NCBI GenBank assembly: GCA_012103255.1
Contig: WLXD01000007.1
Coordinates: forward strand, 62,001-126,000
Direction of reading: 5' to 3'
From: Acidobacteriota bacterium
GTDB taxonomy: Bacteria; Acidobacteriota; UBA890; WLXD01
DNA length: 64,000 bases
The notes under the pieces were generated by a model. It did not search any database. It had not been told where the DNA came from and saw nothing but the letters and a program-made list of their open reading frames with translations. This document shows positions 17,102 through 46,377 of this stretch, in pieces (within the stretch, counting starts at the first letter, position 1; every line of letters begins with the position of its first letter). The position numbers and the translations under genes were made by a program.

Positions 17102-17345
17102 AGTGTTGAAAACCGGAGGGATCGACAGGTGAGGCCACGCCCGCCCAGCGGTCGCGCAGCCCGTTGCGGAACGCGTCGGCGCATTCGTTGACGACGAACT
17201 TCAGTCGCGCGGTACGCCCGGAGATTCCGAGGTATCGACGCTCGAAAGTCGCGACCATCTCTGGCCCGAGCTGTCGGCGCATGCTCGGTGGATAGCTGAG
17301 CAGCGCCAACCGATAGAGGCCACTCGCCCGGACGTTGCGCATCAT
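17102..17345 (-). CDS. N-terminal domain of the same ADOP permease, out of frame with the rest
   Basis: The ATG at 17345 lies 2 bases after the PadR stop and begins the ADOP leader domain (SGLYRLALLSYPPSMRRQLG, as in LRLYPKRFRQRYG of the copy at 36.8 kb). This frame passes into the permease in the wrong register. Removing one T from the run at 17109-17112 joins it to the permease and yields about 904 residues. The in-frame copies here have 874-911. I read it as one gene broken by an indel, either sequencing error or mutation. Left uncorrected, the frame runs on meaninglessly to 16743. Confidence 0.7.
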
Positions 17346-28657: not shown

Positions 28658-28987
28658 ATGCCACGAGAGATCTTGGGTGAGTTGGAGCACCAGGTAATGC
28701 TGGCGCTTCTGCGCCTCGAGGACGAGGCGTACACCGCCCCGGTGGTGCTCGAACTCGAGGAGCGAACCGGACGCCCGGTGAAGTCGGCCGCGGTTTACAT
28801 CGCCCTCCGAAGGCTCGAAGAAAAGGGGCTCGTCACCTCCGCGATGCAAAGTCCGGGAGCGGCCGGTGGTCGCGACCGCCGGCACTTCGAAGTAACCGAT
28901 GAGGGCCGGCGCCGTCTTGTCGAAGCGCGCGCGGCCTACGAACGCCTTTGGGACGGACTCGACGTGGCAACCGGAGCACGTCGTTGA
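28658..28987 (+). CDS. PadR family transcriptional regulator
   Basis: Winged-helix regulator of 109 residues, with the PadR core ELEHQVMLALLRLE, SAAVYIALRRLEEKGLV (recognition helix) and RRHFEVTDEG (wing). The second segment, with GRPVKSAAVYI in place of HGYGI-GTLY, marks a different PadR subgroup from the one at 17.5 kb, so the ligand and operator probably differ. Its TGA overlaps the TTG start of the ADOP permease (TTGA), a translationally coupled pair. ATG 28658 is the only sensible start. Confidence 0.9.
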   Translation: MPREILGELEHQVMLALLRLEDEAYTAPVVLELEERTGRPVKSAAVYIALRRLEEKGLVTSAMQSPGAAGGRDRRHFEVTDEGRRRLVEARAAYERLWDGLDVATGARR

Positions 28988-31620
28988 CACCCCCTCGACT
29001 GTGGCGGGCTCTGCTTCGCCGCGTGGTCCCCGCCCACGACCGCGACATCGTGGTGCAGGAACTCGACCTGCTCTACGAGATGAAGGCTGAGCTCGGGGGC
29101 CGTGGCCACGCCGATCGCTGGTACCGCGGCGAAGCGCTCTCGTTCGCGCTGACCGTACCCCTGGCCGGGCTACGCCAACTCCTCCCCACCCAGGAAACCA
29201 CGATGAAAGACATGCTCGCCGACCTCGTTCGCGAAACCGGCCAGGCCGTGCGCTCCCTGGCTTCCCAGCCGGGTGTCAGCGTCGTCTGTCTGGCGGCACT
29301 GGTGCTCGGGATCGGCGCCAACACATTGATCTTCTCGATCGTCGATCACGTCGTGCTTCGACCGCTGCCCTACGCCCAGCCTGAACAGCTGGTCGACGTA
29401 TGGCCGTCGTACTTCTTGCTTCGCGGCGAGATCGAGTTCTTCGAGGAGAACGTCAGCTCGGCGGCGGTCGGAGCCTTCGTTCGAACGTCGGGGATCAACG
29501 CCTTGATCGATGGCACGAGTCGGCGGCTCGCTGCCAACCAGGTGGCGCCCGAGCTTCTCGATGTTCTCGATGTACAACCCCTGCTGGGGCGCAACTTCCT
29601 GGCCGATGAGGATGCCGTTGGCAGAAACGCCGTCACGCTCATCTCTTACGGGCTGTGGACGTCAGACTACGGCGCCGATGCCAATGCACTCGGCGAGGCC
29701 ATCGTGCTCGACGGCGTGCCGCACGAGATCGTGGGCGTTCTGCCGGCTGCGTTCGCGTTCCCGGATCGCAACCAGGATCTCCTCGTGCCCATCCTGATGG
29801 ACGCCCAGAATCCGGGCCTGCACTGGGGCTCAGGCGGCGCCCGCGCGGTAGCGCGGCTCAACCCAGGCGCAACCACCACACAGCTTCACGATGAAATGCA
29901 GGCACTGGCCCAGGAAGTCCGCCTGAAGAATCCGCTGTGGACCCCGAACGAGGATTTCCGCGCGGAGGGCACCATCGCGCCGCTTCGCGATGCGATGGTG
30001 CGAAACGTCGAATCCAATCTGGTTCTGCTCCTCGGCGCGGTCGGTCTCGTGCTCCTCGTAGCGTGCGCCAACGTCTCGAACCTTCTGCTCGCGCGGGCGA
30101 TATCACGGTCGCACGACCTCGCGGTGCGGGCGGCCCTAGGTGCGGGCCGGCGCCTTCTCCTGCGGCAGCAGCTCCTGGAAAGCCTCGTATTGGTTCTCGT
30201 GGGGTGTGCCCTCGCAGTATTCGTCGCGAGCCGGGCGCTGAACGTCATGGTCCGCATGCTCCCCGCTGAGATCCCGCGTGCGGGCGAAATCGCCCTCGAC
30301 GGACGCGTGCTCTCGATCAGCGTCGTCGTGGCAATCCTCGCCGGACTCTCCGCGAGCCTGCTCCCAGCGATGCGCGCTTCGCGAACCTCACCGAGCGCTG
30401 CCCTACGTGAGGGTGGTCGGGGATCCAGCGCCAGTGCGCATCGGCGTCGGATGTCCGCGGCCATGGTGGTGGTGCAGGTGTCGGCGGCAGTCGTCTTGGT
30501 GACAGGAGCGGGGCTACTGATCCGAACACTTGGCGCCCTGAGTCAGGTCGACCCTGGCTTCGAGACCGAACGCGTCGTCACGGCGAGGTTCACTCTCAAC
30601 CCGGACGGGTACAACGAGGCCAACACACGCATGGGCCTATTCACACAGATGGTCGAGGGCGTGGAGGCACTCCCCGGCGTGCAGCTTGCGGCAGCGGCGG
30701 GTCATGTTCCTTTCGGCCCCGGCTGGACCGGCATGGCGACGTTCATCGAGGACGTCACCGCCGATCCCAACGAATTGCCTTTCGTTCGGCATACGGAAGT
30801 CACTCCCAGATACTTCGAGACGATGGGCATTCCTCTGCTGCAGGGTCGCGACATCGCCGCGTCGGACCGCGCCGACACCGAACTCGTGGCCGTCGTGGAC
30901 GCGGAGATGGTTCGAACCTACTGGCCCGACACGAACCCGATCGGCAAGCGGATTCGCTACCCGTGGCGCAACGCACCGTGGATCACCGTGATCGGAGTGG
31001 TGGGAGGGACTGCAGAAACGAGCCTCGACGCCGAGCGAACCGCGGCCTTCTACGTCCCGATGGCGCAGAGGCCGCCAGTGGCGATCAACCTCGTGGCCCG
31101 CTCGACAGGCGGCCGGGCCGTCGAGGTGCAGGCGATCGAGGCGGTCGCCAACGGGATCGACGGCACGATACCGATGAGCGCCGCTGGCCCCCTGAGCGAT
31201 TTTCTTGCCACGTCGATGGCACGGGCCCGCTGGAGCACCGGGCTCGTCGCGGGTTTCGCGGCGCTCACGCTTCTGCTCGGATGCATCGGGGTTTACGGTG
31301 TCGTCGCCTACTCAGTGGCCGAACGCACACGTGATTTCGGCGTCCAGATGGCTCTAGGAGCGGCTCCGTCTCGCATCCGCCGCGCAGTTCTGCTCCAGGG
31401 ACTACGCCTGGCCCTGCCAGGGGCAGCCGTCGGGCTCCTGATTTCAATCCCCGCTACGCGCGCGCTCGAGAGCATGCTCTACGGCGTCACAGCACTAGAC
31501 CCCGTCACCTACGGTGCGGTGCCCGCCGTGCTCGTGATGGCCACGCTGGTGGCGTGCTACGTGCCCTCGCGCCGCGCCACACGGGTTGACCCGGCAACCG
31601 CACTACGTGCCGAAGTCTGA
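28984..31620 (+). CDS. ADOP-type FtsX/MacB orphan permease
   Basis: Large membrane protein of 878 residues. An N-terminal cytoplasmic leader (TPPRLWRALLRRVVPAHDRD, about 1-75) is followed by the first MacB core (TM at about 100 with LGIGANTLIFS; periplasmic part to 330) and FtsX helices (about 345-480). The second unit repeats this and ends in VDPATALRAEV. The TTG start overlaps the PadR stop and gives MTPPRLW, a common ADOP N-terminus. No ATPase partner is encoded nearby. Role unknown; MacB-like folds suggest mechanical work on envelope substrates, controlled here by the adjacent PadR. Confidence 0.92.
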   Translation: MTPPRLWRALLRRVVPAHDRDIVVQELDLLYEMKAELGGRGHADRWYRGEALSFALTVPLAGLRQLLPTQETTMKDMLADLVRETGQAVRSLASQPGVSVVCLAALVLGIGANTLIFSIVDHVVLRPLPYAQPEQLVDVWPSYFLLRGEIEFFEENVSSAAVGAFVRTSGINALIDGTSRRLAANQVAPELLDVLDVQPLLGRNFLADEDAVGRNAVTLISYGLWTSDYGADANALGEAIVLDGVPHEIVGVLPAAFAFPDRNQDLLVPILMDAQNPGLHWGSGGARAVARLNPGATTTQLHDEMQALAQEVRLKNPLWTPNEDFRAEGTIAPLRDAMVRNVESNLVLLLGAVGLVLLVACANVSNLLLARAISRSHDLAVRAALGAGRRLLLRQQLLESLVLVLVGCALAVFVASRALNVMVRMLPAEIPRAGEIALDGRVLSISVVVAILAGLSASLLPAMRASRTSPSAALREGGRGSSASAHRRRMSAAMVVVQVSAAVVLVTGAGLLIRTLGALSQVDPGFETERVVTARFTLNPDGYNEANTRMGLFTQMVEGVEALPGVQLAAAAGHVPFGPGWTGMATFIEDVTADPNELPFVRHTEVTPRYFETMGIPLLQGRDIAASDRADTELVAVVDAEMVRTYWPDTNPIGKRIRYPWRNAPWITVIGVVGGTAETSLDAERTAAFYVPMAQRPPVAINLVARSTGGRAVEVQAIEAVANGIDGTIPMSAAGPLSDFLATSMARARWSTGLVAGFAALTLLLGCIGVYGVVAYSVAERTRDFGVQMALGAAPSRIRRAVLLQGLRLALPGAAVGLLISIPATRALESMLYGVTALDPVTYGAVPAVLVMATLVACYVPSRRATRVDPATALRAEV

Positions 31621-32959: not shown

Positions 32960-33301
32960 ATGGCCGCTACCGCGAAGAGCCATTCATCGATCTCGATGCT
33001 CGAGACCCAGGTTCTTCTGGTGCTGGCGAGCACGAAGCTGCACGGCTACGGCATTGCACTCGAGATCCAGAAGCGCGACCCGGACGGGCCGAAGATCTAT
33101 CCGACCAACCTGTACCGCCGACTGCACGACCTGGCCGACCGCGGGCTAATCGCGAATTCGGGCACTGAACTGGATGACAAGGGCCGCGCTCGGAAGACCT
33201 TCAGCATCACTGACGGCGGACGCGAAGCGCTCGCCTCGCAGACCTCCCGTCTAGCGGGATTCGTAGACGAACTCCGAGCCGCGGAGGGTTCGCCGGAATG
33301 A
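32960..33301 (+). CDS. PadR family transcriptional regulator
   Basis: Winged-helix regulator of 113 residues. The core is ETQVLLVLASTKLHGYGIALEI, YPTNLYRRLHDLADRGLIA with the recognition helix, and the wing RARKTFSITDGG. AGGTG lies 5 bases upstream of the ATG. The TGA overlaps the ATG of the next permease (ATGA), so expression is coupled. The recognition helix differs from the other PadR copies here, and so do the upstream palindromes, which argues for separate control of each permease. Confidence 0.9.
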   Translation: MAATAKSHSSISMLETQVLLVLASTKLHGYGIALEIQKRDPDGPKIYPTNLYRRLHDLADRGLIANSGTELDDKGRARKTFSITDGGREALASQTSRLAGFVDELRAAEGSPE

Positions 33302-36033
33302 CGCACGCAGAGGTAGCGAGCTGCGCGCACCCACGCCAGGTCGCTCTCTATCGCCGACTCCTGCGCTTCCTTCCGGAGCCGCTGGCCCGCGACCACGGCG
33401 ATGACATGGCCGCCCTCTTCTGCCACCACCTGATGGATGCGCGCGGTTCGCTGGGCGGCAGCACGGGGGTGTGCCTCTCGGCACTCCGCGACCTGATTCA
33501 GCACGGCCCGCGACTTCCCCGGCGTTCCATCGGCGACCCCAGCCCCAAGCGCACCCCGCACGAGGACCAGACGATGATCGAACGAGCACAGAGATTTCTC
33601 AGCAACCTGGGTCGCGATGGGCGCTACGCGCTGCGGCTACTGCGGCGCGAGTGGACGTTCACGCTCGCCGCAACTCTGATCCTTGGTCTCGCGATTGGCG
33701 CGAATACGGCGGTTTTCAGCTACATCGACGCGTACCTTCTGCGCCCGCTCCCCTATCCCGAGGCCGAGAACCTGGCGTTCGCCGCGCGTGAGTTCACGCA
33801 GGAAGGCGGCATCAGCGTCTCCCAGGACGGTCGCACCTGGAACGCGATCTCCGAAGCACAGAGCACCAACTTCGACGCCGCCGTGTACTCGGGCTGGTCG
33901 ACCAGCGTCAATCTGGCGACGGGCACGAGCGCGACGACTGTCGGAGTGCAGCGCGTTGGAGCGGGCTACTTCGAAACTCTGGGAGTGCTTCCGCTCCTTG
34001 GTCGCGAGTTCACCGCGGCAGAGGATGTGCCCGACGGGCCGCCCGTCACGATTCTCAGTCACGACACGTGGCAACAGTTGTTCGGCGAAGACCGGAGTGC
34101 GGTGGGGCGCTCGGTGCTTCTCCGCGGCGAGCCCTACACGGTGGTTGGCGTCATGCCTCCCGACTTCCGCAGCCAGGCCGAGGCCGACCTGTGGACGCCG
34201 CTGCAACCGAGTACGTCCGGAGAGGGCGGCGGCACCAACTACGCCATCCTGGTGCGTGTGACCGACCAGGACAGCTGGGCCGGCGCAGAGGCCGAACTCC
34301 AGTCCATCGGCATGGGACTCAACGAGCAGATCGAAGATCCCTCACGCCGCTATCGGCTGACTCTGACGTCGCTTCAGGCCGGCCAGTCCGCGGGCATGCG
34401 CTCGATGCTGACGCTCCTGGCCGCCGCGGTCGGCGCCGTGCTCCTGATTGCGTGCGTCAACGTGAGCGGTTTGCTGCTGGCGCGCGGGGCGCGGCGGGGA
34501 GCTGAGATCGCCACCAGGATGGCCATTGGCGGCGGCCGCGCCGCAATCATCCGCCAGTTCCTCGTGGAGAGCGTGGTGCTTGCGCTACTTGGTGGCGCAG
34601 CCGGTCTGCTCATCGCCCGAGTCTTCGTGAGCGGGATCGCATCGGTGGGTCGAGGTGTCCTCGATAACTGGCAGCCGGTTCAACTCGACGCTCGAGTGCT
34701 CGCGGGGACGGCGTTGATCGCCCTCGTCACTGCGCTCGTGTTCGGCCTCGCCCCGGCGTTTCAGGCCAGTCGGATCTCGATCAACGATGCATTGCGCGCC
34801 GGTGGCGGACGTGGTGTGGCCGGCGGGGGCAACCGTTGGCGCCGAGGCCTGGTCGTCGTCGAGGTCGCTCTTTGCGTTGTGCTACTCGTCGCGGCCGGAC
34901 TGCTACTGCGCACGTTCCTGCATCTACAGGGACTGGAACCGGGCTTTGATCCCGACGGCATCGTTACTGTTTCCGTATCGCTTCAAGACGCCCGCTACGA
35001 AACGCGTCAGTCCGCCGAGCAACTCTTCAACGACGGACTCGAGCGCGTGCGTGCGCTACCAGGAGTCGTTTCGGCAACGGCGGGCCTGGGCATGCCTTAT
35101 CAGAGGCTCCTGAACATGCCGTTCAGACCTGGTGACTTCGAGCTCCCCGAGGGCTGGAATCCGATCACGAACATGATGTACGTGAGTTCGGACTACTTCG
35201 AAACGTTGCGTGTCCGCGTCACCGAGGGGCGCGGAATCGACACCAGTGATGTTCAGGACTCCGAGCCAGTCGTGGTCATCAACGAGGCGTTTGCGCAGCG
35301 CTACCTGCCGCAACAAGCCCGACTGGATCGGACTCTCGATGTGGGACAGTCGCTGCGTGTCGTCGGCGTCGTAGAGACCGTGCGTCAGAGCGGCCGCGGC
35401 ATCGGTATTGGCGGTCCTGTCGCCGAAACGCCGATCATCTACGTGCCGGTTTCGCAGGTGAGCGACGGCTTCCTTGCCACTGTGCACACCTGGTTTGCAC
35501 CATCATGGATCGTGCGCGTGGGCGGCGAACCGGGCGAAGCCGCACGCAATATCGAGCAGGCACTCGACGGGGTTGATCCGCTGCTGCCGCTCGGCGCGAC
35601 ACTCTTTGCCTCCGACCTCCGATCGAGTGCGACCTCGGACCAACGGTTCACGGCGACTTTGGTCGGAGTACTGGCCGCTGCCGCGATGGTGCTCGCCGGC
35701 CTCGGGATCTACGGACTGGTGGCCAGTACCGTCGCCGAGCGACGCCGCGAGATCGGCATCCGCATGGCGCTCGGCGCACGGGCAGCGCATGCGATCAAGA
35801 TCAGCGCGATGCCAAGCGTCAAGCTGGCGATTGCGGGCGCGGTGATCGGCATCGGCGGCTCGTTCCTCGCACACAGCGGACTACAGTCGATGCTCTATGG
35901 CGTTGCGCCCAACGATCCGTGGACGTACTTCGGCGTCTCCGGAGCGTTGGTGATCGCGGCATCGATCGCCAGCCTGATCCCGGCGCTACGCGCCACGCAG
36001 GTAGACCCGGCGAACACGCTGCGAGTGGACTAG
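33298..36033 (+). CDS. ADOP-type FtsX/MacB orphan permease
   Basis: Largest ADOP in the window, 911 residues. A leader domain (CAHPRQVALYRRLLRFLPEP, about 8-80) precedes the first MacB core (TM about 118-140, LGLAIGANTAVFSYIDAYLL). FtsX helices lie at about 360-500, with LIACVNVSGLLLARGARR and the usual A-x-R-M-A-I-GGGR coupling segment. The second unit ends with GIRMALGARAAH and the tail VDPANTLRVD. The start overlaps the PadR stop. Like its neighbours it has no ATPase gene beside it. Sequence divergence between copies suggests different substrates or conditions rather than recent duplication. Confidence 0.93.
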   Translation: MTHAEVASCAHPRQVALYRRLLRFLPEPLARDHGDDMAALFCHHLMDARGSLGGSTGVCLSALRDLIQHGPRLPRRSIGDPSPKRTPHEDQTMIERAQRFLSNLGRDGRYALRLLRREWTFTLAATLILGLAIGANTAVFSYIDAYLLRPLPYPEAENLAFAAREFTQEGGISVSQDGRTWNAISEAQSTNFDAAVYSGWSTSVNLATGTSATTVGVQRVGAGYFETLGVLPLLGREFTAAEDVPDGPPVTILSHDTWQQLFGEDRSAVGRSVLLRGEPYTVVGVMPPDFRSQAEADLWTPLQPSTSGEGGGTNYAILVRVTDQDSWAGAEAELQSIGMGLNEQIEDPSRRYRLTLTSLQAGQSAGMRSMLTLLAAAVGAVLLIACVNVSGLLLARGARRGAEIATRMAIGGGRAAIIRQFLVESVVLALLGGAAGLLIARVFVSGIASVGRGVLDNWQPVQLDARVLAGTALIALVTALVFGLAPAFQASRISINDALRAGGGRGVAGGGNRWRRGLVVVEVALCVVLLVAAGLLLRTFLHLQGLEPGFDPDGIVTVSVSLQDARYETRQSAEQLFNDGLERVRALPGVVSATAGLGMPYQRLLNMPFRPGDFELPEGWNPITNMMYVSSDYFETLRVRVTEGRGIDTSDVQDSEPVVVINEAFAQRYLPQQARLDRTLDVGQSLRVVGVVETVRQSGRGIGIGGPVAETPIIYVPVSQVSDGFLATVHTWFAPSWIVRVGGEPGEAARNIEQALDGVDPLLPLGATLFASDLRSSATSDQRFTATLVGVLAAAAMVLAGLGIYGLVASTVAERRREIGIRMALGARAAHAIKISAMPSVKLAIAGAVIGIGGSFLAHSGLQSMLYGVAPNDPWTYFGVSGALVIAASIASLIPALRATQVDPANTLRVD

Positions 36034-36474: not shown

Positions 36475-36819
36475 ATGTCACCAGCCGCTTCGCCTGATGC
36501 GCTCTCACCGACAACTCTGCAGATTCTCCTGAGCCTGGTGCGGGAGCCCCGGCATGGATATGGAATCAAGCTGGACATCGAGGAGCGCACCGAGGGTGCC
36601 ATGTCACTTGGGTCCGGGACCCTGTACCAGGCCCTGGCCCGGCTCGAGCAACAGGCAATGATCGCGACTCAGGGCACGGACGCGGAAACCGACGCGCGCC
36701 GAGGCCGCCTCTACGCCCTGCTTCCGGCCGGGCGCACGGCAGTTCAACGCCAACTGAGTTCGATGCAGAGAACGGTCAGCAGCGACGCAGCACGCCTGGC
36801 GCTGGCTGACCCGGAGTGA
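36475..36819 (+). CDS. PadR family transcriptional regulator
   Basis: Winged-helix regulator of 114 residues: LQILLSLVREPRHGYGIKLDIEE split by the usual turn, GSGTLYQALARLEQQAMIA (recognition helix) and RRGRLYALLPAG (wing). It belongs to the HGYGI/GTLY subgroup, like the copy at 17.5 kb. GGAGG (36464-36468) stands 6 bases before the ATG at 36475 and fixes the start. The TGA overlaps the GTG of the permease (GTGA). A long palindrome sits in its promoter region, consistent with autoregulation. Confidence 0.9.
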   Translation: MSPAASPDALSPTTLQILLSLVREPRHGYGIKLDIEERTEGAMSLGSGTLYQALARLEQQAMIATQGTDAETDARRGRLYALLPAGRTAVQRQLSSMQRTVSSDAARLALADPE

Positions 36820-39491
36820 ACCATTCGACCGGCCTGCCCGAGTTTCTCTTCGGGCTACTCCTGCGCTTGTATCCGAAACGGTTCCGCCAGCGGTACGGCC
36901 AGGAACTCCTGATCTTCTTCCGCGCCGAGAGTCGGCGCGCGACTAATCGCGGCCTGCTTGGTCGCTCGAAGTTCTGGCTGCGCACGATCAGCGACACGTT
37001 CGTCGCGGCGCGCCGCTATCGCCGAATGTCCATCCCCACCGGACCACGCTCGCCCATGCTCATGCAGACGCTGCCACGTCATTTCCAGCTCGCTCTCCGC
37101 GCCATGCGACGCCAGCCGTCGTTCGCGTTCCTCGTCGTCCTGAGTCTCTCCATTGGCATGAGCGCCGCATTGATCGTCTTCTCCCTCGCCGAGGCCGCCC
37201 TGGTCGAGGCGATGCCGTTCGAGGAAGGCGACGGGCTCTTCTTCATCGATGGCACTCTGGCGGATGATCGCAGCGACGTTCGCGCCGGGTCCTATCCGGA
37301 GATCGCACGGTGGCGTGACGACACCTCGGCGTTCGAGGGGCTGGCCGCGATGTCAGGTATCGCGCTCAACCTCGTCACGCCGGACCTTGTAGAGCGCATC
37401 CAGGCCGAGATCGTCGGAGCCGATTACTTCGCCCTCCGACGGGCGCGGCAGATCGCCGGCCGTCTCCTCGGCGATGAAGACGGCCCTGAACGTGGGGAAT
37501 CCGCGGTCGTCGTCATCGGGGAAACCCTGTGTGAGCGCGTCTTCGATCGCAGCGACGTGCTCGGAACTCAGATCACGCTCAACGAGATTCCCCTCACCGT
37601 GGTCGGCATCGTGCCCGAGAGCTTCGTCGGGCTGGCCCTCGGCGCCGAGGCCTGGGTACCGATGAGCATGACGCGCGTGGTCGGCCGGGATACCGAACGC
37701 CGGGGCAGTCGCTGGCTCACGTCGATCGCGCGGCTCAACGACAACACCTCAGTCGAAGCCGCGCAGGCAGAACTCGACGGCGTCGCGCTCGATCTGGCCA
37801 CTGAATGGCCGCAGACGAACGACAACCGTACGGGCACCCTACAGCCCGCACGGGAGGCGTATCTCGACACAGCGGAGGACCTCATTCTCCTCTTGCTGGG
37901 CGCTGGTGTTCTGTTGCTGTGTATCGCCTCCGCCAACGTCGCCGGACTGCTTCTTCTGCGCGCCGAAACCCAAACCGCCGAACATGCGCTCTGCCTGGCG
38001 TTGGGCGAGCGGCGTGCCGGGATCGGACTCCGGGTGATCACCGAGTGCTTCACATTCGCCGTGGTCGCGGCTGTCATCAGCTGGGGCCTTGCTCAAGCGA
38101 CACTTCAGTGGGCGATGTCGTCGCTTCCCGCAAACGCTCTCCCAAGCTTCGTCACCCCCCGGCTGGATGCAGGGAGTCTGCTGTTCATGCTCGCTGCCGT
38201 GCTACTGGCAACCGGCGTGGCCGCATTGATTCCGGCGCTCTGGAGCTCGCGCGGCGACCTGACATCGGCCCTTCGAGGAAGCCGAGCTCTCGGTGCGAGT
38301 TCGGGCGGCACGCGGAGTCCGCAGCGCATGTTCGTCGTTGCTCAAATCGCGACCACCCTCGTGCTACTCGTCGCCACGGGGCTGATGGGACGCACGGTGA
38401 TCTCGAAACTCAATGTACCGACGGGGTTCGATCCCACGGATCTGTATGCGTTCCGAGTCCGCGTCCCGGCGGACCATGAGGACAGCGCTGCCCGAGACGC
38501 CTTCGCCGCTTCCGTTCGTGACCAGGTCGCTGGCATTCCAGGCGTGCTCGAAACCACATATGGCTCTGACGTGCCGCTGCGTGGTGGATCGAGCGCGGGA
38601 CTCGTGGTTCTGGCCGAGGCACCCGATCAGACAATCCGCTACTACCGGCATCGCGTGAGCCCCGACTACTTCGCGCGAACGGGAATCCAGATCCTGAACG
38701 GCAGAGGATTCGACGCCACCGACACTGCCGATTCCATGGCTGTCGTCGTGGTAAGCGAGGGGTTCGCGAGCCGGTTCATGCCCGGGCAGAACCCGGTCGG
38801 GCAAACGCTGGTCCGCGCTCCCGGATTCGGCGATATCCCCACCACCATTATCGGAGTCGCGGCGTCGACCCGATGGCGCGACCTGACCGCTGATCTGACG
38901 GCCGACGGCGATGACCCCGACTTGTACTTCCCCTTCGCGCAGTTCAGCACTCGGGTTGTCGAGTTCGTGGTTCGCGCGGAAACGGGCGCAACCGAACTGC
39001 CCGACGCGATTCGCCAAGCGGTGCGCACTTTGGCGCCGGACGCGCCCGCCTATCAGTTCACAAGCCTGAACGAACAACTCGATCAACAGACCGCCGGCGA
39101 TCGGCTGACTCTGGTCGTTCTCGCGACATTCGCCGTGAGATCGCTACTCCTCGCCGGAGTGGGCGTCTATGGAACTCTCGCGCAGGCGGTTCGGAGGCGT
39201 CGCCGGGAAATTGCGATCCGCATGGCGGTTGGTGCCGCCGGATCGGTTGTGCGGCGCGGCATCCTGAGTGAGGGCATGCGCCTCACAGGTGCGGGCGCAG
39301 TCTTCGGCCTCGTCACGTCGCTGGCACTGACTCGGCTCGTAAGCGGTCTCCTGTTCGGCGTGACCGCGCTCGACCCCGGCACGTACATCGTCGTGCTCGC
39401 AGCGCTCGCGACCTTGGCTCTGCTGGCAACCTGGGTGCCCGCGGCCAGGGCAACCCGAGTCGACCCGCAAGCGGCCCTACGCTCCGACTAG
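36816..39491 (+). CDS. ADOP-type FtsX/MacB orphan permease
   Basis: ADOP permease of 891 residues. The leader domain is textbook: LPEFLFGLLLRLYPKRFRQRYGQELLIFF (about 7-35, here given only as its key LRLYPKRFRQRYG core). The first MacB core starts at about 100, with LSLSIGMSAALIVFSLAEA in place of the usual GIGANTAIF. FtsX helices at about 350-480 carry LLCIASANVAGLLLLRAET. The second unit ends GIRMAV-like with EIAIRMAVGAAGSV and VDPQAALRSD. The GTG start overlaps the PadR stop. The TM1 motif is unusual within the family, but length and layout are complete. Confidence 0.92.
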   Translation: MNHSTGLPEFLFGLLLRLYPKRFRQRYGQELLIFFRAESRRATNRGLLGRSKFWLRTISDTFVAARRYRRMSIPTGPRSPMLMQTLPRHFQLALRAMRRQPSFAFLVVLSLSIGMSAALIVFSLAEAALVEAMPFEEGDGLFFIDGTLADDRSDVRAGSYPEIARWRDDTSAFEGLAAMSGIALNLVTPDLVERIQAEIVGADYFALRRARQIAGRLLGDEDGPERGESAVVVIGETLCERVFDRSDVLGTQITLNEIPLTVVGIVPESFVGLALGAEAWVPMSMTRVVGRDTERRGSRWLTSIARLNDNTSVEAAQAELDGVALDLATEWPQTNDNRTGTLQPAREAYLDTAEDLILLLLGAGVLLLCIASANVAGLLLLRAETQTAEHALCLALGERRAGIGLRVITECFTFAVVAAVISWGLAQATLQWAMSSLPANALPSFVTPRLDAGSLLFMLAAVLLATGVAALIPALWSSRGDLTSALRGSRALGASSGGTRSPQRMFVVAQIATTLVLLVATGLMGRTVISKLNVPTGFDPTDLYAFRVRVPADHEDSAARDAFAASVRDQVAGIPGVLETTYGSDVPLRGGSSAGLVVLAEAPDQTIRYYRHRVSPDYFARTGIQILNGRGFDATDTADSMAVVVVSEGFASRFMPGQNPVGQTLVRAPGFGDIPTTIIGVAASTRWRDLTADLTADGDDPDLYFPFAQFSTRVVEFVVRAETGATELPDAIRQAVRTLAPDAPAYQFTSLNEQLDQQTAGDRLTLVVLATFAVRSLLLAGVGVYGTLAQAVRRRRREIAIRMAVGAAGSVVRRGILSEGMRLTGAGAVFGLVTSLALTRLVSGLLFGVTALDPGTYIVVLAALATLALLATWVPAARATRVDPQAALRSD

Positions 39492-39563
39492 CTACTTCTT
39501 CGGCGTCGCTGCTCGTTTCTTTGGACTTGCCTTTCGTGGACTAGCTTGGGAACCATAGGTTCC

Positions 39564-40637
39564 ATGTCCTCTCGCTACAAAGTCCCGTTGGTGGCCGTAT
39601 TCGTCGCTGTCGCACTCCCGGCGGCTGCCCAACAGTCGCTTGAGAGTCCTCAGCTCTCGCTGTTGGCTTCATGGGGTTGTGCGGAATGTAGCGGCGCTGA
39701 ACTGCTTGGCGAAATTCAGAGCGTGACTCTTGCCCCGAACGGGACCGCCTACGCCCTGGACAGCTTCGAGCCGGCAATTCGGATATTCGTGCGCGATCAG
39801 CCGGCCGGGGCGTTCGGCCAGGAAGGTGAAGGGCCTGGCGAGTTCCAGCTCGCGAGCTTCGCCGGCGCAGCGCCCAGCGGACTCGAGGTCATCGACACGA
39901 GGCATCGCCGGATCAGCCGGCTCACCTACTCTGGCGACTTGGTCGATACGCGGCGGTTGACCGGGTTCCCTACCTACGCGTCCTATGACACAGAGACCGG
40001 CACCTGGTACTTCGCCACGATGGACTGGGCTTCCGGTGGCGCCCGCGTCACGCGACTCGAACCGCTTGGATCCGACCCGATCGCTGTAGGTCCGACGGAC
40101 TTCCCGCTAAGTGACAAGGGGACGCTCGCGGGCTTCTATCCAATTGCGGCGCGGCCGGGAGGCGGTTTCGCCGTCGGCGACGGCGCACGGGAATACCGCA
40201 TTCGCATCTATTCCGATTCCGGCGATCTACGGCACGAGATCCATCGTCCTCTCGAACGCATGGCGCGAACACCAGCTGAGATGGAGTTCGAACAGGAACG
40301 GATGGCCATGGGTGCCGCAGCAATGGCGCGCCTCGCGAACGCGGAGGGTGGCACACGGACGATGCCCGAGGTCGATCCGCTGAAACGACACTTCTACGTA
40401 CACGCTCTCCGCTACGACGACCACGGCAGACTTTGGGTGCTGACCAGGCGCGGGAACGAGAATCACTCGATCTTCGATATCTATTCCCCCACAGGCGCTG
40501 ACCTCGGAGAGGTCTCCGTTCCAGGCATGGTCGACCGCTTCGACGTACGGGGGCAGCGTCTGCTCACAGCTGGCATCACTGAGGACTGGGTGCCCGTGGT
40601 GCGACTCTGGGATCTTGAGGATTCGGCGCAGCGCTAG
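39564..40637 (+). CDS. 6-bladed beta-propeller (NHL-like) secreted protein
   Basis: Exported protein of 357 residues with a signal peptide (about 1-23, ending PAAAQQ). The propeller is suggested by repeated blades such as IQSVTLAPNGTAYALDSFE, IRIFVRDQPAGAFGQEGEGP (the GxGEFQ element of NHL repeats follows), GLEVIDTRHRRISRLTYSG and HALRYDDHGRLWVLTRRG. A Cys pair CAEC (about 39-42) may form a disulfide. Such proteins are abundant in Gemmatimonadota and Acidobacteriota, with no proven role. The ATG at 39564 is used; a TTG 18 bases earlier is possible. Confidence 0.78.
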   Translation: MSSRYKVPLVAVFVAVALPAAAQQSLESPQLSLLASWGCAECSGAELLGEIQSVTLAPNGTAYALDSFEPAIRIFVRDQPAGAFGQEGEGPGEFQLASFAGAAPSGLEVIDTRHRRISRLTYSGDLVDTRRLTGFPTYASYDTETGTWYFATMDWASGGARVTRLEPLGSDPIAVGPTDFPLSDKGTLAGFYPIAARPGGGFAVGDGAREYRIRIYSDSGDLRHEIHRPLERMARTPAEMEFEQERMAMGAAAMARLANAEGGTRTMPEVDPLKRHFYVHALRYDDHGRLWVLTRRGNENHSIFDIYSPTGADLGEVSVPGMVDRFDVRGQRLLTAGITEDWVPVVRLWDLEDSAQR

Positions 40638-42091
40638 AAAGGAGTCAGCTGCGGCGCGGCAAGTAAGGTGACTCCCAGACGAGAGGAGCTCTCAAAACAG
40701 AGCCAACTGCTCCGCGGTGGGCTCCGCTCAGCAGTACCACGGCTCTGTGAGGGATACGGAATCGTGGCGCGCGCCGGCAATGGCGGCAACTCGTGCAGGC
40801 GCGCGTCGCCTGGCGCGTGCCTCCTGGCGTACCGGCTCGCGAGGTCCCAGATCGCCTCGAACGTCTGACTGCGATGCCGATCGGCTCGGGCGTCGGCATC
40901 CACGAGCGCCTCGATCTCCCGCTGCAAGGCGTCCATCTCCGGGCGCGGGTGCTTCCACGGGTAGCCGAGTAGTGCCTCGTCGAAGTCGTCGACCAGATCG
41001 GACACTTCAGGCACGTCGAGTAGCCACGATCCTCGCGGAATCAGTAGACGGATCGCCAGCTGAATTGGCGATACGTTGCCCACGAGATCCAACTCGCCCA
41101 GGGTCCGCAGCATGTCCGCATAGCTTTCGAGGGTCGTCCACGGAGTGAAGGCGACGAAGGTTGGCTGCAGGTTCAGACCGTTGTCCCGGCAGAGTTCGAC
41201 CGCAGTGACGAAGTCCGCACGCGAGTGTCCCTTGTCGAGGAACGAAAGCGTGCGCTCATCGAGGGCCTCGACTGCACTCGTTATCAATGTGCAGCCTGTG
41301 CGCTGCAGCACCGGAAGAAGTTCGCGCTGGGCGAGCAAGTGCTCGACCTTCACGGTGACGTCGTAGCTAAGTCCTGGATGGCGCGCGTGGAGTGCCTCGA
41401 CCACGGCGCGCGCGTGACCCGGACCATTGAAGAAATCCGGATCGCCGAAAGTGATGTGCTGGGCACCGGCGCTCACCTGCTGGTCGACGTCGGCCATCAC
41501 GATGTCGGCCGGGACCACGTGGAAGCGCCCCTTGTAGACAGGAACAACGGGGCAGTGGCGGCATACATGCTTACAGCCTCGGGTTGCTTCGGTGCTGCCG
41601 ACCACGCGCTCGGTCCCATCCGGCATGCGCAATCGGGCGTACCGATCGAGGGCGGGCAGTCCCGCACGGTCCGGCACCTCGAACTCCATCCGGTCCAGGG
41701 CCACGGCCGTGGCCTCTTCGGGTGAGCCGGTCTGCCCCATCAGGAATCCCGCGAGGTAGTGCTCGCATTCCGCCGCCCCGAGGAACTCGACTCCGTGCTC
41801 ACGGAGCGCAGTGGCGTTGAGCGGTGCGTAGAGCCCCCATGCGCCGAGTCGCGCCTCGGGGTTGAGCTGACGAATGCGCGGCAGCGCGGCCAACGCGATG
41901 CGGGTCGCGGTGAACATCGGCAACCAAAGCGCGATGGCGTCGGCCGTCTGTACTTCCTCGTCGTCGAGAGTGTCCACCGACAGATCCAGACAGCGAGCCT
42001 CGCCTCCCCGCCCCTCAATGAGCGCGGCCGCCAGCCCGACAGCGAACGGCTGTCGTCCGAGTTCGTACGTCGAGATCAGAAGCACTTTCAT
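40634..42091 (-). CDS. B12-binding/radical SAM protein of the CUAEP/CCAEP-tail family (frameshifted 3' end)
   Basis: Radical SAM enzyme with an N-terminal cobalamin-binding-like Rossmann domain (about 1-140). The [4Fe-4S] motif is CKHVCRHC (Cys173, 177, 180), the SAM barrel runs to about 400, and a helical C-terminal extension follows. ATG 42091 gives MKVLLISTYE, typical of the B12 domain. The B12-ligand His motif DxHxxG is absent, so cobalamin binding may be base-off or lost. As read, the last about 50 residues are low-complexity nonsense. Restoring one C in the CCC run at 40751-40753 leads into a Cys-UGA-Ala-Glu-Pro tail with a true stop at 40692, giving 466 residues. No substrate is known for the family. 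Confidence 0.87.
   Translation of the reverse strand: MKVLLISTYELGRQPFAVGLAAALIEGRGGEARCLDLSVDTLDDEEVQTADAIALWLPMFTATRIALAALPRIRQLNPEARLGAWGLYAPLNATALREHGVEFLGAAECEHYLAGFLMGQTGSPEEATAVALDRMEFEVPDRAGLPALDRYARLRMPDGTERVVGSTEATRGCKHVCRHCPVVPVYKGRFHVVPADIVMADVDQQVSAGAQHITFGDPDFFNGPGHARAVVEALHARHPGLSYDVTVKVEHLLAQRELLPVLQRTGCTLITSAVEALDERTLSFLDKGHSRADFVTAVELCRDNGLNLQPTFVAFTPWTTLESYADMLRTLGELDLVGNVSPIQLAIRLLIPRGSWLLDVPEVSDLVDDFDEALLGYPWKHPRPEMDALQREIEALVDADARADRHRSQTFEAIWDLASRYARRHAPGDARLHELPPLPARATIPYPSQSRGTAERSPPRSSWLCFESSSRLGVTLLAAPQLTPF
40692..40753 (-). other. Hidden C-terminal tail with candidate selenocysteine codon
   Basis: In the frame one base off from the radical SAM gene the sequence reads LTEPWYC, UGA (40728-40730), AEPTAEQLALF, then a second UGA (40692-40694). 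The Cys-Sec-Ala-Glu-Pro string is the hallmark that names the CUAEP/CCAEP-tail radical SAM (seleno)protein family. An RNA hairpin GAGCC/GGCUC begins 3 bases after the UGA and could be a bacterial SECIS, though its apical loop is weak. No sel genes lie in the window. Confidence 0.7.
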
Positions 42092-42430: not shown

Positions 42431-45055
42431 CTACTCCGCCCGCAGCGCTTCCGTTGGCGCGATATGCAGCGCCTTCAGTGTCGGTTTGAGACATGCGACT
42501 ACGGCGACCACTACCGTTGTCGCGACCCCGATCGACAGAGGACCGGCAAGTGTCCACCAAGCAGGCAACGCGCTCGCGTCGACCACCGCAACGAACACCG
42601 CCGCTGCTCCTGGTAGACCGATCGTCACGCCCACCAGCACTTGCGTGAGAGCCTGACGAGACACAGTGAGCGCAATACTCCGCTTCCCCGCGCCGAGCGC
42701 CTTGCGAATGCCGATCTCGGACGTTCGTCGCGCGACGCTGAAAGACATGATCGCGTAGAGACTGGACGTAGCGAGCGCTAGCAGAATCAGGACGAGCAGC
42801 CCTCCGCCCAGCGCTGTTCCGCCCATTACGTACCAGTCCCCTTCATAGATCTCGCTGAGCGGCCTGGGGTTCCGCAGTGCCGCTGCGGGATCGATTCCCA
42901 TGGTGAGTGCGCGGAGACGCGGCGTGAAGGCTCCCGGATCCGGGCCAACGTCAATCGCGATGCGCAGCGGTTGGATCGCGCCCGGTGCCGCGGGAAGGTA
43001 CACACCCGCGTCCTCATCAGGCTGGAGCACATGCATCCCCAGATGACCCACAACACCCACGACCTCATGCCAGGACGTCGGCGGCGCTGAACTGCTCGCC
43101 CGGAGTCGGATCCGGCGCCCAATCGGATCGCCACCCGCGAGCACCTGATCGACGAAGTTGGTGTTCACGATCACGCTGGTGACGCCGTCGGACAAGTCGC
43201 TGGGCTGGAAGTCGCGCCCAGCCAGAATGGACCGTCGCAGCTCGCCGAAATAGTGGACATCCACGACCGCGAGCCGTACGCGACGATCGCCGAGGGGGGC
43301 GGGCGATCCACCCTCGACCTCAACGCTGCGCCGCGGATGGTCCATCCGTGGCAGTGCGCTGGCCGCAGCGACACCGCCAACTCCTGGCTCCGCGCGCAAA
43401 CGATCCAGAAGAGCGGGTGCCGTCGAGTCGAGATTGGACTCCCCAGAACTTGTGGCCGTAGGGAACCTCACTTCGACAGCCAGGTACTCGGTTGCGTCAA
43501 TCCCGACGCCATCCGTCGATCGCGCAACGTCTACAACCATGTGCCCGATCGCAAGGGCCAGCGCGACCACGACGACGGCGCACGCTACGTCCCCCACGAT
43601 CAACCATCCAGTCCACCCGCCAATCCGGCGCTGATTGCCGCCGTCCAGTCCAGCTCTGATATTCGGCCGTGTCAGCCGAAGGGCTGGTATCGCGCCCGCC
43701 ACGACTGCACTCAGAATCGCGAGGACAAGCGCGATTCCCGCGGCGGTCGGAGTCAATCCTGGATCGACCCAATACGGCAACAACGGGGTGATGTTGGCGA
43801 CGTCAAGTAAGCGAGCCGGCACCCAGTCGATCAGTACAAGGCCACCGGCCGTGGCGATCCCGGCGAGCACGAGAGACTCGGTGAACACCTGCAATACGAT
43901 GCGCGACCGGCTCGCCCCGAGCGCCGACCGGACTGAGAGTTCCAGTGCTCTCGCGGAGGTACGCGCGAAGACGAGCATGCCCACATTCGCGCACGCGACG
44001 AACAAGAGGATGATCGCCACGGACTGAGCCAGGGCGAATTCCGGCGTCGTCCGCAGCCCGCCACGATCCATTCCCACGCCCATATGGGCTGTCGGGAGCA
44101 CCTCCGCCCTGAGGCCCTCGTACGCGGCCGGAAAATCGGCGATATACCGCGCCAGCGTCCCTTCAAGTTCGACGTTCGCAGCTTCCTCCTGGATTCCGCT
44201 AGCGAGCCTGCCGTAGACCAGTAGCTGCCCGCCTTCTCCCGGCTGCGTCGACGCAGGCAGAAGAAGCGGGCGCCAGAGTTCGTGTCGAATTGGGAATCGG
44301 AACCCGGCTGGCATCACGCCGACAACGGTGTGCTCGATCCCGTTGAGACGAATGGACTGGCCCACGGCGGCGGGATCTGCGCCAAGTCTCGAGCGCCAGA
44401 GGCTGTAGCCAATCACGACAACAGGCTCCGCACCGGCCTGCTCGTCTCCGCGGTCCAGCGTCCGGCCGAGCAAAGGCGGTACGCGGAGGAGTTCGAACGT
44501 GGAGGCCGTTACCCGGGCGCCGGGAACAGGGTCAACAACCCCGCCGTCGACGTTGTCAGAAGTCATGAGTGCCGCGCCAAGCTCGGCAAAGGAAGTCAGT
44601 TCATCCTGCCATCGAACATAATCGTACGGCCGCGGCAAGGAACGACGCGAGCTTGCCGCGTCCCAGTACCGCAATGTTCGCACCCGGTCACCTTCCTCCA
44701 CAGGCAGCGGAGATTCGATGGCCGTCACGAATTGCCACGGCGCCAGCCCGACCGGGATCCCCACACCGAGCGCGAATACCGCCACGGCGGTGAGCACGGG
44801 TTGCTGCCAGACGAGTCGAATCCCTAGCTTGACGTCGATCCACGAGAAGCTGGGCCATCTCGCCGGGACGCTAGCGGCCGCCACCCGGAACAGGTCCGCG
44901 AACTCGCGCAACCACACGATCGCCGCGCCGCGACGACCCGCCGAGCGGAGCCGCGCCTGGATCAGTTCATCCATTTCGCGGTTGTGGCGCAGGGTGAATC
45001 CACCGAGGAGGATACGGCGAAGCACACGATGTGCGGAGGCGAGCGGTCGGTTCAC
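42431..45055 (-). CDS. ADOP-type orphan permease without its own PadR gene
   Basis: ADOP permease of 874 residues. A short leader (MNRPLASAHRVLRRILLGGF, about 1-70) is followed by the first MacB core (TM about 84-105, FALGVGIPVGLAPWQFV, which lacks the usual GANTAIF) and FtsX helices (about 345-475, LFVACANVGMLVFARTSARA). The second unit ends EIGIRKALGAGKRS and IAPTEALRAE. It is the only complete ADOP here with no PadR upstream; the gene above it is a sugar oxidoreductase. An element matching the PadR operator of the 17.5-kb module lies 40 bases before its ATG. The leader and TM1 are the most divergent of the set. Confidence 0.9.
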   Translation of the reverse strand: MNRPLASAHRVLRRILLGGFTLRHNREMDELIQARLRSAGRRGAAIVWLREFADLFRVAAASVPARWPSFSWIDVKLGIRLVWQQPVLTAVAVFALGVGIPVGLAPWQFVTAIESPLPVEEGDRVRTLRYWDAASSRRSLPRPYDYVRWQDELTSFAELGAALMTSDNVDGGVVDPVPGARVTASTFELLRVPPLLGRTLDRGDEQAGAEPVVVIGYSLWRSRLGADPAAVGQSIRLNGIEHTVVGVMPAGFRFPIRHELWRPLLLPASTQPGEGGQLLVYGRLASGIQEEAANVELEGTLARYIADFPAAYEGLRAEVLPTAHMGVGMDRGGLRTTPEFALAQSVAIILLFVACANVGMLVFARTSARALELSVRSALGASRSRIVLQVFTESLVLAGIATAGGLVLIDWVPARLLDVANITPLLPYWVDPGLTPTAAGIALVLAILSAVVAGAIPALRLTRPNIRAGLDGGNQRRIGGWTGWLIVGDVACAVVVVALALAIGHMVVDVARSTDGVGIDATEYLAVEVRFPTATSSGESNLDSTAPALLDRLRAEPGVGGVAAASALPRMDHPRRSVEVEGGSPAPLGDRRVRLAVVDVHYFGELRRSILAGRDFQPSDLSDGVTSVIVNTNFVDQVLAGGDPIGRRIRLRASSSAPPTSWHEVVGVVGHLGMHVLQPDEDAGVYLPAAPGAIQPLRIAIDVGPDPGAFTPRLRALTMGIDPAAALRNPRPLSEIYEGDWYVMGGTALGGGLLVLILLALATSSLYAIMSFSVARRTSEIGIRKALGAGKRSIALTVSRQALTQVLVGVTIGLPGAAAVFVAVVDASALPAWWTLAGPLSIGVATTVVVAVVACLKPTLKALHIAPTEALRAE

Positions 45056-45094: not shown

Positions 45095-45128
45095 AGTATC
45101 GCGACACGATATATCGCAACACGATACT
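45095..45128 (-). promoter_or_regulatory. Putative PadR operator upstream of the PadR-less ADOP
   Basis: Outer inverted repeat AGTATCG (45095-45101)/CGATACT (45122-45128) encloses the perfect palindrome CGATATATCG (45107-45116). The first 27 bases match 17724-17750 at 22 positions. It sits 40 bases upstream of the permease ATG and touches the end of the oxidoreductase frame. Confidence 0.6.
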
Positions 45129-46377
45129 AATCAATAACAGCCCCTCGACTACAGCCCCGTCGAACCCTCGACCATCGGGAGACTAGTAGACGATGTCCAC
45201 GATCCTGCGGGTTGCCGACGACTCCTCCACCGCCGTCGCAGATCACGGCTGCGCGATAGCCGTCGAGGAACGTCGCGCCGTGCGGCGCCACCTCCGTGTC
45301 GTTCACGATGGCTTCGAGCAGATGTGCCACCTCGTGTACGAACGTGTGCTCCCAGCCGATGATGTGACCATGCGGCCACCAGTGCTCCAGGAACGGATGG
45401 TGCGCCTCTGTCATCAGCGCTTGATGAAAGCCCTGTGTCGACTCCGGCTCTTCACCAACCCAGAACACTTCGAGTTCGTTCAGGCGCTCGAGATTGAAGC
45501 GGACTGAGCCGTGCTCGGCGTTGATCTCGATGACTTGATGGTTCTTGCGGCCCGCCGCGTAGCGCGTTGCCTCGAGTGTGCCGAGCGCTCCGTTGGTGAA
45601 CTGAACACTCGCCGCAAAGGCATCGTCGACGTCGACCGTCGCCACCCCTGAGCCGTCCGGCAGGGGCCGTTCCTTGATGAACGTCTGCGTCATCGCGCCC
45701 ACGTGGGCGATATCGCCAACGAGGTAGTGCGCGAGGTCGATGATGTGCGCACCGAGGTCGCCCAGCGCGCCGCTCCCGGCTTCGCTCTTGTTCAAGCGCC
45801 AGATCGCAGGAGTGCCGTAGTGCGGCATGATCCACTCTTGGAGATACGCGGCCCGAAAGTGATAGATGCGACCTAGCTTGCCGCTGTCGATCAGCTCCCG
45901 AATCTGGCGGATTGCCGGCACGAAGCGGTAGTTGAACGCGACCATGTGCTTCACACCAGCAGCGTCAACGGCATCCAGCATGGCGCGCGACTCTTCCGCG
46001 GTGCGCCCGAGCGGCTTCTCGCAGAGCACGTGCTTGCCGGCCTCGGCCGCCGCAATGCACGGCGCCGCATGGGCATCATTGGGACCGCCGTTGTCGAACA
46101 GTTGCACGCTGTCATCAGCGATCATGTCGCGCCAATCGGTATAGGCGCGGGAGTACCCGAAGCGCGCAGCGGCGCCCTGCACCGCCGACTCGTTGCGGCC
46201 GCAAATCGCCGCCAACACCGGCACAGCCGGCGGTGGATAGACCATGTAGGGCAAAGTCCGGAATGCGTTCGAATGCGCCTTCCCCATGAACGCGTACCCG
46301 AGCATTCCCACGCCGACCGTCGGGATGTCACCGGCAGCGTGATCGCCGGCCATAGCGGTGAAGGCCTGGTCGCTCAT
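45127..46377 (-). CDS. Gfo/Idh/MocA family oxidoreductase (frameshift near the 3' end)
   Basis: NAD(P)-dependent sugar or inositol oxidoreductase. The Rossmann fold starts with [19 protein letters not shown] (about 22-40). The family active-site segment is [15 protein letters not shown] (EKP Lys about 115), and the C-terminal half has [19 protein letters not shown] with the catalytic Asp/His. The ATG at 46377 overlaps the isomerase stop (ATGA). As read, the last about 37 residues are nonsense. Dropping one G near 45234 gives the normal family ending [19 protein letters not shown] with a stop at 45183 (397 residues). I read that as the true end. With the upstream TIM-barrel enzyme it should process a sugar or cyclitol. 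Confidence 0.9.

What the first reader, a model, noticed from the sequence alone, without database searches (positions are those of the whole stretch)
40692..42091. Radical SAM gene hides a Cys-UGA-Ala-Glu-Pro tail: candidate selenoprotein behind a frameshift
Seen: in the frame one base off from the radical SAM gene the sequence reads LTEPWYC, UGA (40728-40730), AEPTAEQLALF, then a second UGA. The normal frame ends in about 50 residues of nonsense, and adding one C to the CCC run at 40751-40753 joins the enzyme to this tail. Known: a radical SAM family is named for a CUAEP or CCAEP tail, where U is selenocysteine. Inferred: UGA codes selenocysteine here and the protein has 466 residues. No member of this family has a known substrate, so a natural Sec-bearing copy is worth study. 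Standard gene callers would miss the tail twice, once for the UGA and once for the indel.
Basis: partly seen in the sequence, partly recalled or inferred. Interest (0 to 1): 0.85.

Follow-up and report, generated by a model that had tools for sequence, protein, structure and literature searches.

The report
Selenocysteine radical-SAM enzyme with frame break
An acidobacterial genome carries one more copy of a known but uncharacterised selenium-containing enzyme family; its selenium tail was hidden by a small frame break that is probably a sequencing error, and its partner gene suggests that it helps make an unusual amino acid that is joined into a small peptide.

Summary
The minus-strand gene starting at 42091 belongs to NCBIfam NF040546 (CUAEP/CCAEP-tail radical SAM selenoprotein; 550.6 bits, cut-off 500). 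Its LTEPWYC-UGA-AEPTAEQLALF tail lies in another frame. Joining the frames raises the score to 591.0 bits (two C removed) or 584.7 (one C added); the family's fixed spacing also favours two extra bases over one missing base. No frame break was seen in the relatives examined, and about eight other mid-gene breaks were seen in 0.5 Mb of this assembly, so an assembly indel is the likely cause.

Selenocysteine coding is well supported: SelA, SelB, SelD and tRNA-Sec are present, and a hairpin meeting the published bacterial SECIS model follows the UGA; it covaries in 70 UGA relatives and is missing from 36 Cys relatives.

New here: in 396 genomes of the phylum the gene co-occurs almost perfectly with an L-amino-acid-ligase-type ATP-grasp gene (62 of 63), often directly downstream. 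The window's genome keeps an intact copy elsewhere. With ArsL as nearest characterised relative, I propose synthesis of an arsinothricin-like amino acid that is capped as a dipeptide; that chemistry is inference. New member of a known kind.

The parts
40692..42091 (-). CUAEP-tail radical SAM gene: body in one frame, Sec tail in another
   Evidence: NF040546 550.6 bits as assembled, 591.0 with frames joined
41550..41575 (-). Region coding the radical SAM CxxxCxxC motif (Cys173, Cys177, Cys180)
   Evidence: All three Cys present in all 107 aligned sequences; coordinates computed from codon numbers
40751..40753 (-). CCC run where the frame breaks; two bases too many by family spacing
   Evidence: Spacing P-x-x-x-E in 106 of 107; profile scores 591.0 against 584.7 bits
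40728..40730 (-). UGA codon read as selenocysteine (inferred), Cys-Sec-Ala-Glu-Pro tail
   Evidence: 72 relatives have TGA and 36 have TGC/TGT here; Sec machinery present
40698..40714 (-). SECIS-like hairpin: stem CGGAGC/GCUCUG, loop AGUUG
   Evidence: Six of six pairs; covaries in 70 UGA relatives, missing in 36 Cys relatives; -9.7 kcal/mol and RNAalifold consensus
40692..40727 (-). Tail coding AEPTAEQLALF, then the stop UGA 40694-40692
   Evidence: Matches the short-tail group of the family
40634..40750 (-). Unrelated out-of-frame extension of the assembled reading frame
   Evidence: No coding signal, no profile match

Best explanation
The locus encodes a CUAEP-type radical SAM selenoprotein. 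In the living organism the gene is most likely intact: about 465 residues, with UGA 40728-40730 read as selenocysteine under the hairpin at 40698-40714. The frame break is most likely a two-base assembly error in the CCC run; a recent real mutation is the main alternative. Function (inferred): the enzyme builds an unusual amino acid. It cleaves SAM at its [4Fe-4S] cluster, as its relative ArsL is proposed to do, and transfers a SAM-derived group, probably 3-amino-3-carboxypropyl, to a soft acceptor such as As(III) that is held by the C-terminal Cys-Sec pair. An L-amino-acid-ligase-type ATP-grasp enzyme then couples the product to another amino acid. Shown by computation: family, Sec machinery, SECIS, frame break, genomic pairing with the ligase. 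Inferred: intactness in vivo, amino-acid product, acceptor atom, role of Sec. Separate estimates: identity 0.97; Sec decoding 0.9; frame break an assembly error 0.7, real mutation 0.27, programmed 0.03; amino-acid or peptide product 0.65; ArsL-like transfer to a metalloid 0.35.
For: Family profile over cut-off, +40 bits with the tail joined. SelA, SelB, SelD and tRNA-Sec in the genome. SECIS covariation in UGA but not Cys relatives, all limits of the published bacterial model met. No break seen in relatives; other breaks in this assembly. Ligase in 62 of 63 genomes with the gene and 5 of 333 without; ligase directly downstream in 37 of 94 loci; intact ligase in the window's genome. Nearest characterised family ArsL, 265 bits, with its proposed reaction (PMC8552651). 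Amino-acid and metalloid contexts in L133 and L123.
Against: No reads to test the indel; the automatic frameshift rate is only modestly above that of a control genome. The two other genomes of its genus lack the gene. The window protein departs from 4 of 82 highly conserved columns, tied third highest of 107. ArsP or SaoD genes were found near only two of the loci, so the metalloid link is thin. The free 45-nt fold prefers another structure.
Confidence: 0.7

Rival explanations
1. Real, recent inactivating frameshift: the gene is a young pseudogene in this organism, its tail, SECIS and stop not yet decayed.
For: Sequence as deposited; gene absent from two other genomes of the genus; four departures from highly conserved columns.
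Against: Tail, SECIS and stop undecayed; near-obligate partner gene intact in the genome; other breaks in the same assembly.
Confidence: 0.27
2. Programmed frameshift: the ribosome changes frame before the tail and then reads UGA as Sec.
For: Tail and SECIS are intact in the other frame.
Against: No relative examined needs a frameshift; no XXXYYYZ slippery heptamer at TATCCCTCACAG (read).
Confidence: 0.03
3. Chemical rival: the enzyme uses ordinary 5'-deoxyadenosyl radical chemistry (dehydration, epimerisation or similar), with the Cys-Sec pair as hydrogen donor or redox pair, on an amino-acid substrate later taken by the ligase.
For: The closest solved fold is the radical SAM dehydratase AprD4; most radical SAM enzymes work this way (general knowledge).
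Against: Sequence is much closer to ArsL (265 bits) than to AprD4 (24 bits).
Confidence: 0.3
4. UGA is an ordinary stop; the AEP tail is not translated.
For: Sec insertion was not observed directly; the free 45-nt fold differs from the SECIS hairpin.
Against: 72 TGA and 36 Cys-codon relatives with the same following residues; hairpin covariation only in the UGA set; complete Sec machinery.
Confidence: 0.04

Closest known systems
NCBIfam NF040546, CUAEP/CCAEP-tail radical SAM (seleno)protein
   Same: Whole length, radical SAM cluster motif, tail and Sec codon; score over the curated cut-off
   Different: The assembled gene has a frame break before the tail, not seen in the relatives examined; no ligase gene beside it, unlike many relatives
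ArsL (NF040542), arsinothricin biosynthesis radical SAM protein
   Same: Homologous over profile positions 1-405 of 423, 265 bits
   Different: Far below the ArsL cut-off of 450 bits; tail is CUAEP, whereas the ArsL model is named for RCCLKC
AprD4 radical SAM diol dehydratase (PDB 6fd2)
   Same: Closest solved fold to the homologue model, TM-score 0.67-0.71
   Different: About 20% identity; different reaction; no CUAEP tail reported by the match
L-amino-acid ligases of the ATP-grasp superfamily (partner gene)
   Same: ATPgrasp_N, ATP-grasp_4 and LAL_C2 domains in the partner
   Different: No specific NCBIfam model fits over its cut-off; paired here with a radical SAM selenoprotein

Membership tests
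NF040546 rSAM_CUAEP | Score over the curated cut-off (500 bits) | tested here: met
   550.6 bits as assembled
NF040546 rSAM_CUAEP | CxxxCxxC radical SAM motif | tested here: met
   Cys173, Cys177, Cys180; conserved in all 107 sequences
NF040546 rSAM_CUAEP | C-terminal C-U/C-A-E-P tail in the same reading frame | tested here: inconclusive
   Tail present but in another frame as assembled; family match extends to position 467 of 468 once the frames are joined
Bacterial selenoprotein gene | Sec machinery SelA, SelB, SelD and tRNA-Sec | tested here: met
   All four over their cut-offs
Bacterial selenoprotein gene | SECIS: loop 3-9 nt, stem 4-16 bp, G in the first two loop positions, 16-37 nt spacing, -7.5 kcal/mol or lower | tested here: met
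   Loop AGUUG of 5 nt, 6 bp, 19 nt spacing, -9.7 kcal/mol
Bacterial selenoprotein gene | Cys-containing homologues at the Sec position | tested here: met
   36 of 108 tails have TGC or TGT
Bacterial selenoprotein gene | Selenium in the purified protein | not testable with these tools
   Needs 75Se labelling or mass spectrometry
ArsL (NF040542) | Score over the curated cut-off (450 bits) | tested here: not met
   265 bits
ArsL (NF040542) | RCCLKC motif for which the model is named | tested here: not met
   Joined tail reads EPWYCUAEPTAEQLALF; profile match stops at 405 of 423
ArsL (NF040542) | Transfer of the 3-amino-3-carboxypropyl group to As(III) | not testable with these tools
   Proposed for ArsL in PMC8552651; enzymology needed here

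The most novel reading that the evidence does not exclude
The CUAEP selenoprotein and the L-amino-acid-ligase-type enzyme form a widespread two-enzyme pathway that makes a dipeptide carrying a carbon-metalloid amino acid, an arsenic analogue of phosphinothricin peptides, with selenocysteine holding the metalloid.
Probability: 0.2. Interest if true: 0.85.

Novelty: new member of a known kind. Interest (0 to 1): 0.5.

Why it matters
The family is spread over Acidobacteriota, Proteobacteria, Chloroflexota and Actinomycetota (by record titles; 556 confirmed stretches), and I found no described substrate for it. A near-obligate partner gene turns an orphan selenoenzyme into a testable two-step pathway, and CCAEP (Cys) homologues in the named strains Actinopolyspora xinjiangensis DSM 46732 and Virgisporangium aurantiacum NBRC 16421 allow work without the selenium problem. 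The window case also shows how one small indel before a Sec codon hides a selenoprotein from annotation.

Tried and rejected
Relatives G300 and G354, whose profile match stopped at 404-405, were checked for the same break: their tails are in frame. Programmed frameshifting: no slippery heptamer, no relative needing it. Viral origin: no viral contig encodes a relative. Rfam shows no SECIS family here; the weak mir-1471 and guanidine-III matches are far below threshold. A sequence search of solved structures gave only a weak AprD4 match. Sec genes beside tRNA-Sec: none of the ten neighbouring proteins scanned is a sel gene; they lie elsewhere. The automatic frameshift count separated this genome only weakly from a control (20 against 15 per Mb), so I rest on inspected cases. 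The NfuA-like neighbour as a third obligate part: hits of about 120 bits or more in 30 of 63 genomes with the gene, against 55 of 333 without, so associated but not obligate. Haft's two selenoprotein papers were not held, so I could not check whether the ligase link is already published; CUAEP occurs in no held paper.

Full report
WHAT IS IN THE SEQUENCE. On the minus strand, ATG 42091-42089 opens a radical SAM gene. As assembled, the frame runs on to a stop at 40636-40634 with 39 residues of unrelated sequence after codon 446. A codon-usage scan ends the coding signal at 40751 while the open frame continues for 117 nt. In another frame the sequence reads LTEPWYC-UGA-AEPTAEQLALF-stop.

FAMILY. 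The protein scores 550.6 bits against NCBIfam NF040546, CUAEP/CCAEP-tail radical SAM (seleno)protein (cut-off 500), but only over profile positions 1-437 of 468. In 396 genomes of the phylum, 60 hold a member over the cut-off, most of them with one in-frame TGA. In 28 relatives read out, the tail is PRLTEPWF-C-U/C-AEPTEGQ... or PYLTEPWY-C-U/C-AEPTxxQLAxx, with variants; the window's tail is of the second type. The nearest relatives found share about 55% identity, so no near-identical copy was available to settle the indel.

THE FRAME BREAK. Joining the frames by adding one C gives 466 residues and 584.7 bits; removing two C gives 465 residues and 591.0 bits; both then match to position 467. 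In an alignment of 107 sequences (the window's in its two-C-removed reading), 106 have P four residues before the E of E-P-W. That fixes the break between TAT and CTC and favours two extra bases. No frame break was seen in the relatives: those with a readable tail are in frame through it, and two with early-ending profile matches were checked and are in frame.

ASSEMBLY ERROR OR REAL? Reads are not available. The same window has a second break near 45234 in a Gfo/Idh-type oxidoreductase: removing one base extends its match to the last profile position (386 of 386) and adds 11 bits. An ADOP permease near 17.1 kb changes frame near its start (by inspection). In about 434 kb sampled elsewhere in the genome I judged six of ten flagged events to be clear mid-gene breaks by reading the translations (L155 twice, L159, L160, L168, L170). 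The automatic rate (20 per Mb) is only modestly above a control genome (15 per Mb), so this argument is moderate. Two further points favour an intact gene: the tail, SECIS and stop are undecayed, and its near-obligate partner is intact in this genome. Against: four departures from 82 highly conserved columns (tied third highest of 107), and absence of the gene from the two other genomes of its genus. I put assembly error at 0.7, real mutation at 0.27 and programmed frameshift at 0.03.

SELENOCYSTEINE. The genome has tRNA-Sec (65.9 bits; anticodon TCA by ARAGORN), SelA (534 bits), SelB (346 bits, two pieces in one frame) and SelD (330 bits, itself with one in-frame TGA). After the UGA lies the hairpin CGGAGC-AGUUG-GCUCUG (40714-40698). 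In 70 UGA relatives the six corresponding pairs form on average 5.33 of 6, against 3.78 (sd 0.09) for synonymous-codon shuffles, and the pairs switch between GC, CG, AT and TA. In 36 Cys relatives the figure is 2.58 against 2.52, so the hairpin goes with the UGA. For the window alone the chance of six pairs under synonymous shuffling is 0.04. RNAalifold on 71 UGA sequences returns exactly this hairpin, and the isolated hairpin folds at -9.7 kcal/mol. It meets the published bacterial SECIS limits (PMC13188914). The free 45-nt minimum-energy fold prefers a longer alternative, which I note as a weakness.

PARTNER AND CONTEXT. In 94 loci with a readable tail, an ATP-grasp gene lies within three genes in 51 and directly downstream on the same strand in 37. 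It carries ATPgrasp_N, ATP-grasp_4 and LAL_C2 domains, the make-up of L-amino-acid ligases. Over the same 396 genomes the ligase is present in 62 of 63 genomes with the radical SAM gene (60 over cut-off plus three partial) and in 5 of 333 without (Fisher p = 2.6e-65; relatedness of the genomes is not corrected for). The window has no such ligase, but its genome has one on contig C2 (614 bits), next to an NfuA-like Fe-S carrier. NfuA-like genes also neighbour the radical SAM gene elsewhere but are not obligate. Other neighbours include oligopeptide:H+ symporters and an oxidative damage protection (Fe2+ trafficking) protein. In Virgisporangium (L133) the CCAEP gene follows a VioC/GntD-type amino-acid hydroxylase and lies among adenylation/carrier, MbtH, CmlA-type and halogenase genes; in Actinopolyspora (L123) it is followed by a PLP decarboxylase, an ArsP_1 permease and a SaoD/DsrE family protein. 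A SaoD-like gene also lies in the Methylocapsa locus L101. These contexts point to an amino-acid product, and a few to metalloids.

MECHANISM. The nearest characterised family is ArsL (265 bits), which is proposed to cleave SAM to a 3-amino-3-carboxypropyl radical that bonds to As(III) (PMC8552651). The AlphaFold model of homologue L084 is confident (mean pLDDT 91.8; 75-79 in the tail region) and closest to AprD4; I could not measure where the tail sits. I commit to: SAM cleavage, transfer of a SAM-derived group to a soft acceptor held by Cys-Sec, then ligation to an amino acid. Family, Sec coding and partner are shown computationally; every chemical step is inferred. The main chemical rival is ordinary 5'-deoxyadenosyl chemistry with Cys-Sec as hydrogen donor or redox pair.

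VERDICT. A real feature, correctly spotted. It is a new member of a curated family, with the break better described as two extra bases. The ligase pairing is the part most likely to interest specialists; I could not check whether it is already published.

Noticed in passing
window 45127-46374 (minus), break near 45234: Gfo/Idh-type oxidoreductase (levoglucosan dehydrogenase-like) also has a frame break; removing one base completes its family match.
   Followed up: yes
window about 17040-17140 (minus): ADOP-type permease changes frame near its N-terminus, a third likely break in 64 kb.
   Followed up: partly
L155, L159, L160, L168, L170 (same genome): Six further mid-gene frame breaks, several in ADOP permeases, seen in a 434-kb sample.
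   Followed up: partly
window 14633-17101, 28948-31620, 33298-36033, 36816-39491, 42431-45055: Five large permease-type ORFs in 64 kb (two scanned here match ADOP; the others look alike), several preceded by PadR-like regulator genes.
   Followed up: no
L153:7305-9213 (own genome, contig C2): The L-amino-acid-ligase-type gene lies convergent with an NfuA-like Fe-S protein gene; the same pair is adjacent in same-genus genome G001, where the radical SAM gene was not found.
   Followed up: partly
L133:1526-15232: In Virgisporangium aurantiacum the CCAEP homologue sits in an apparent nonribosomal-peptide-type cluster with hydroxylases, halogenase and MbtH proteins.
   Followed up: partly
L123:9362-12137: In Actinopolyspora xinjiangensis the CCAEP homologue is followed by a PLP decarboxylase, an ArsP_1 permease and a SaoD/DsrE protein, an organometal-like context.
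   Followed up: partly
L074: A MAG record titled Bifidobacterium breve carries a homologue 54% identical to the window protein; the title is probably a misassignment.
   Followed up: no
window 39546-40637 (plus): Convergent 363-residue ORF next to the radical SAM gene has no Pfam or NCBIfam match.
   Followed up: no
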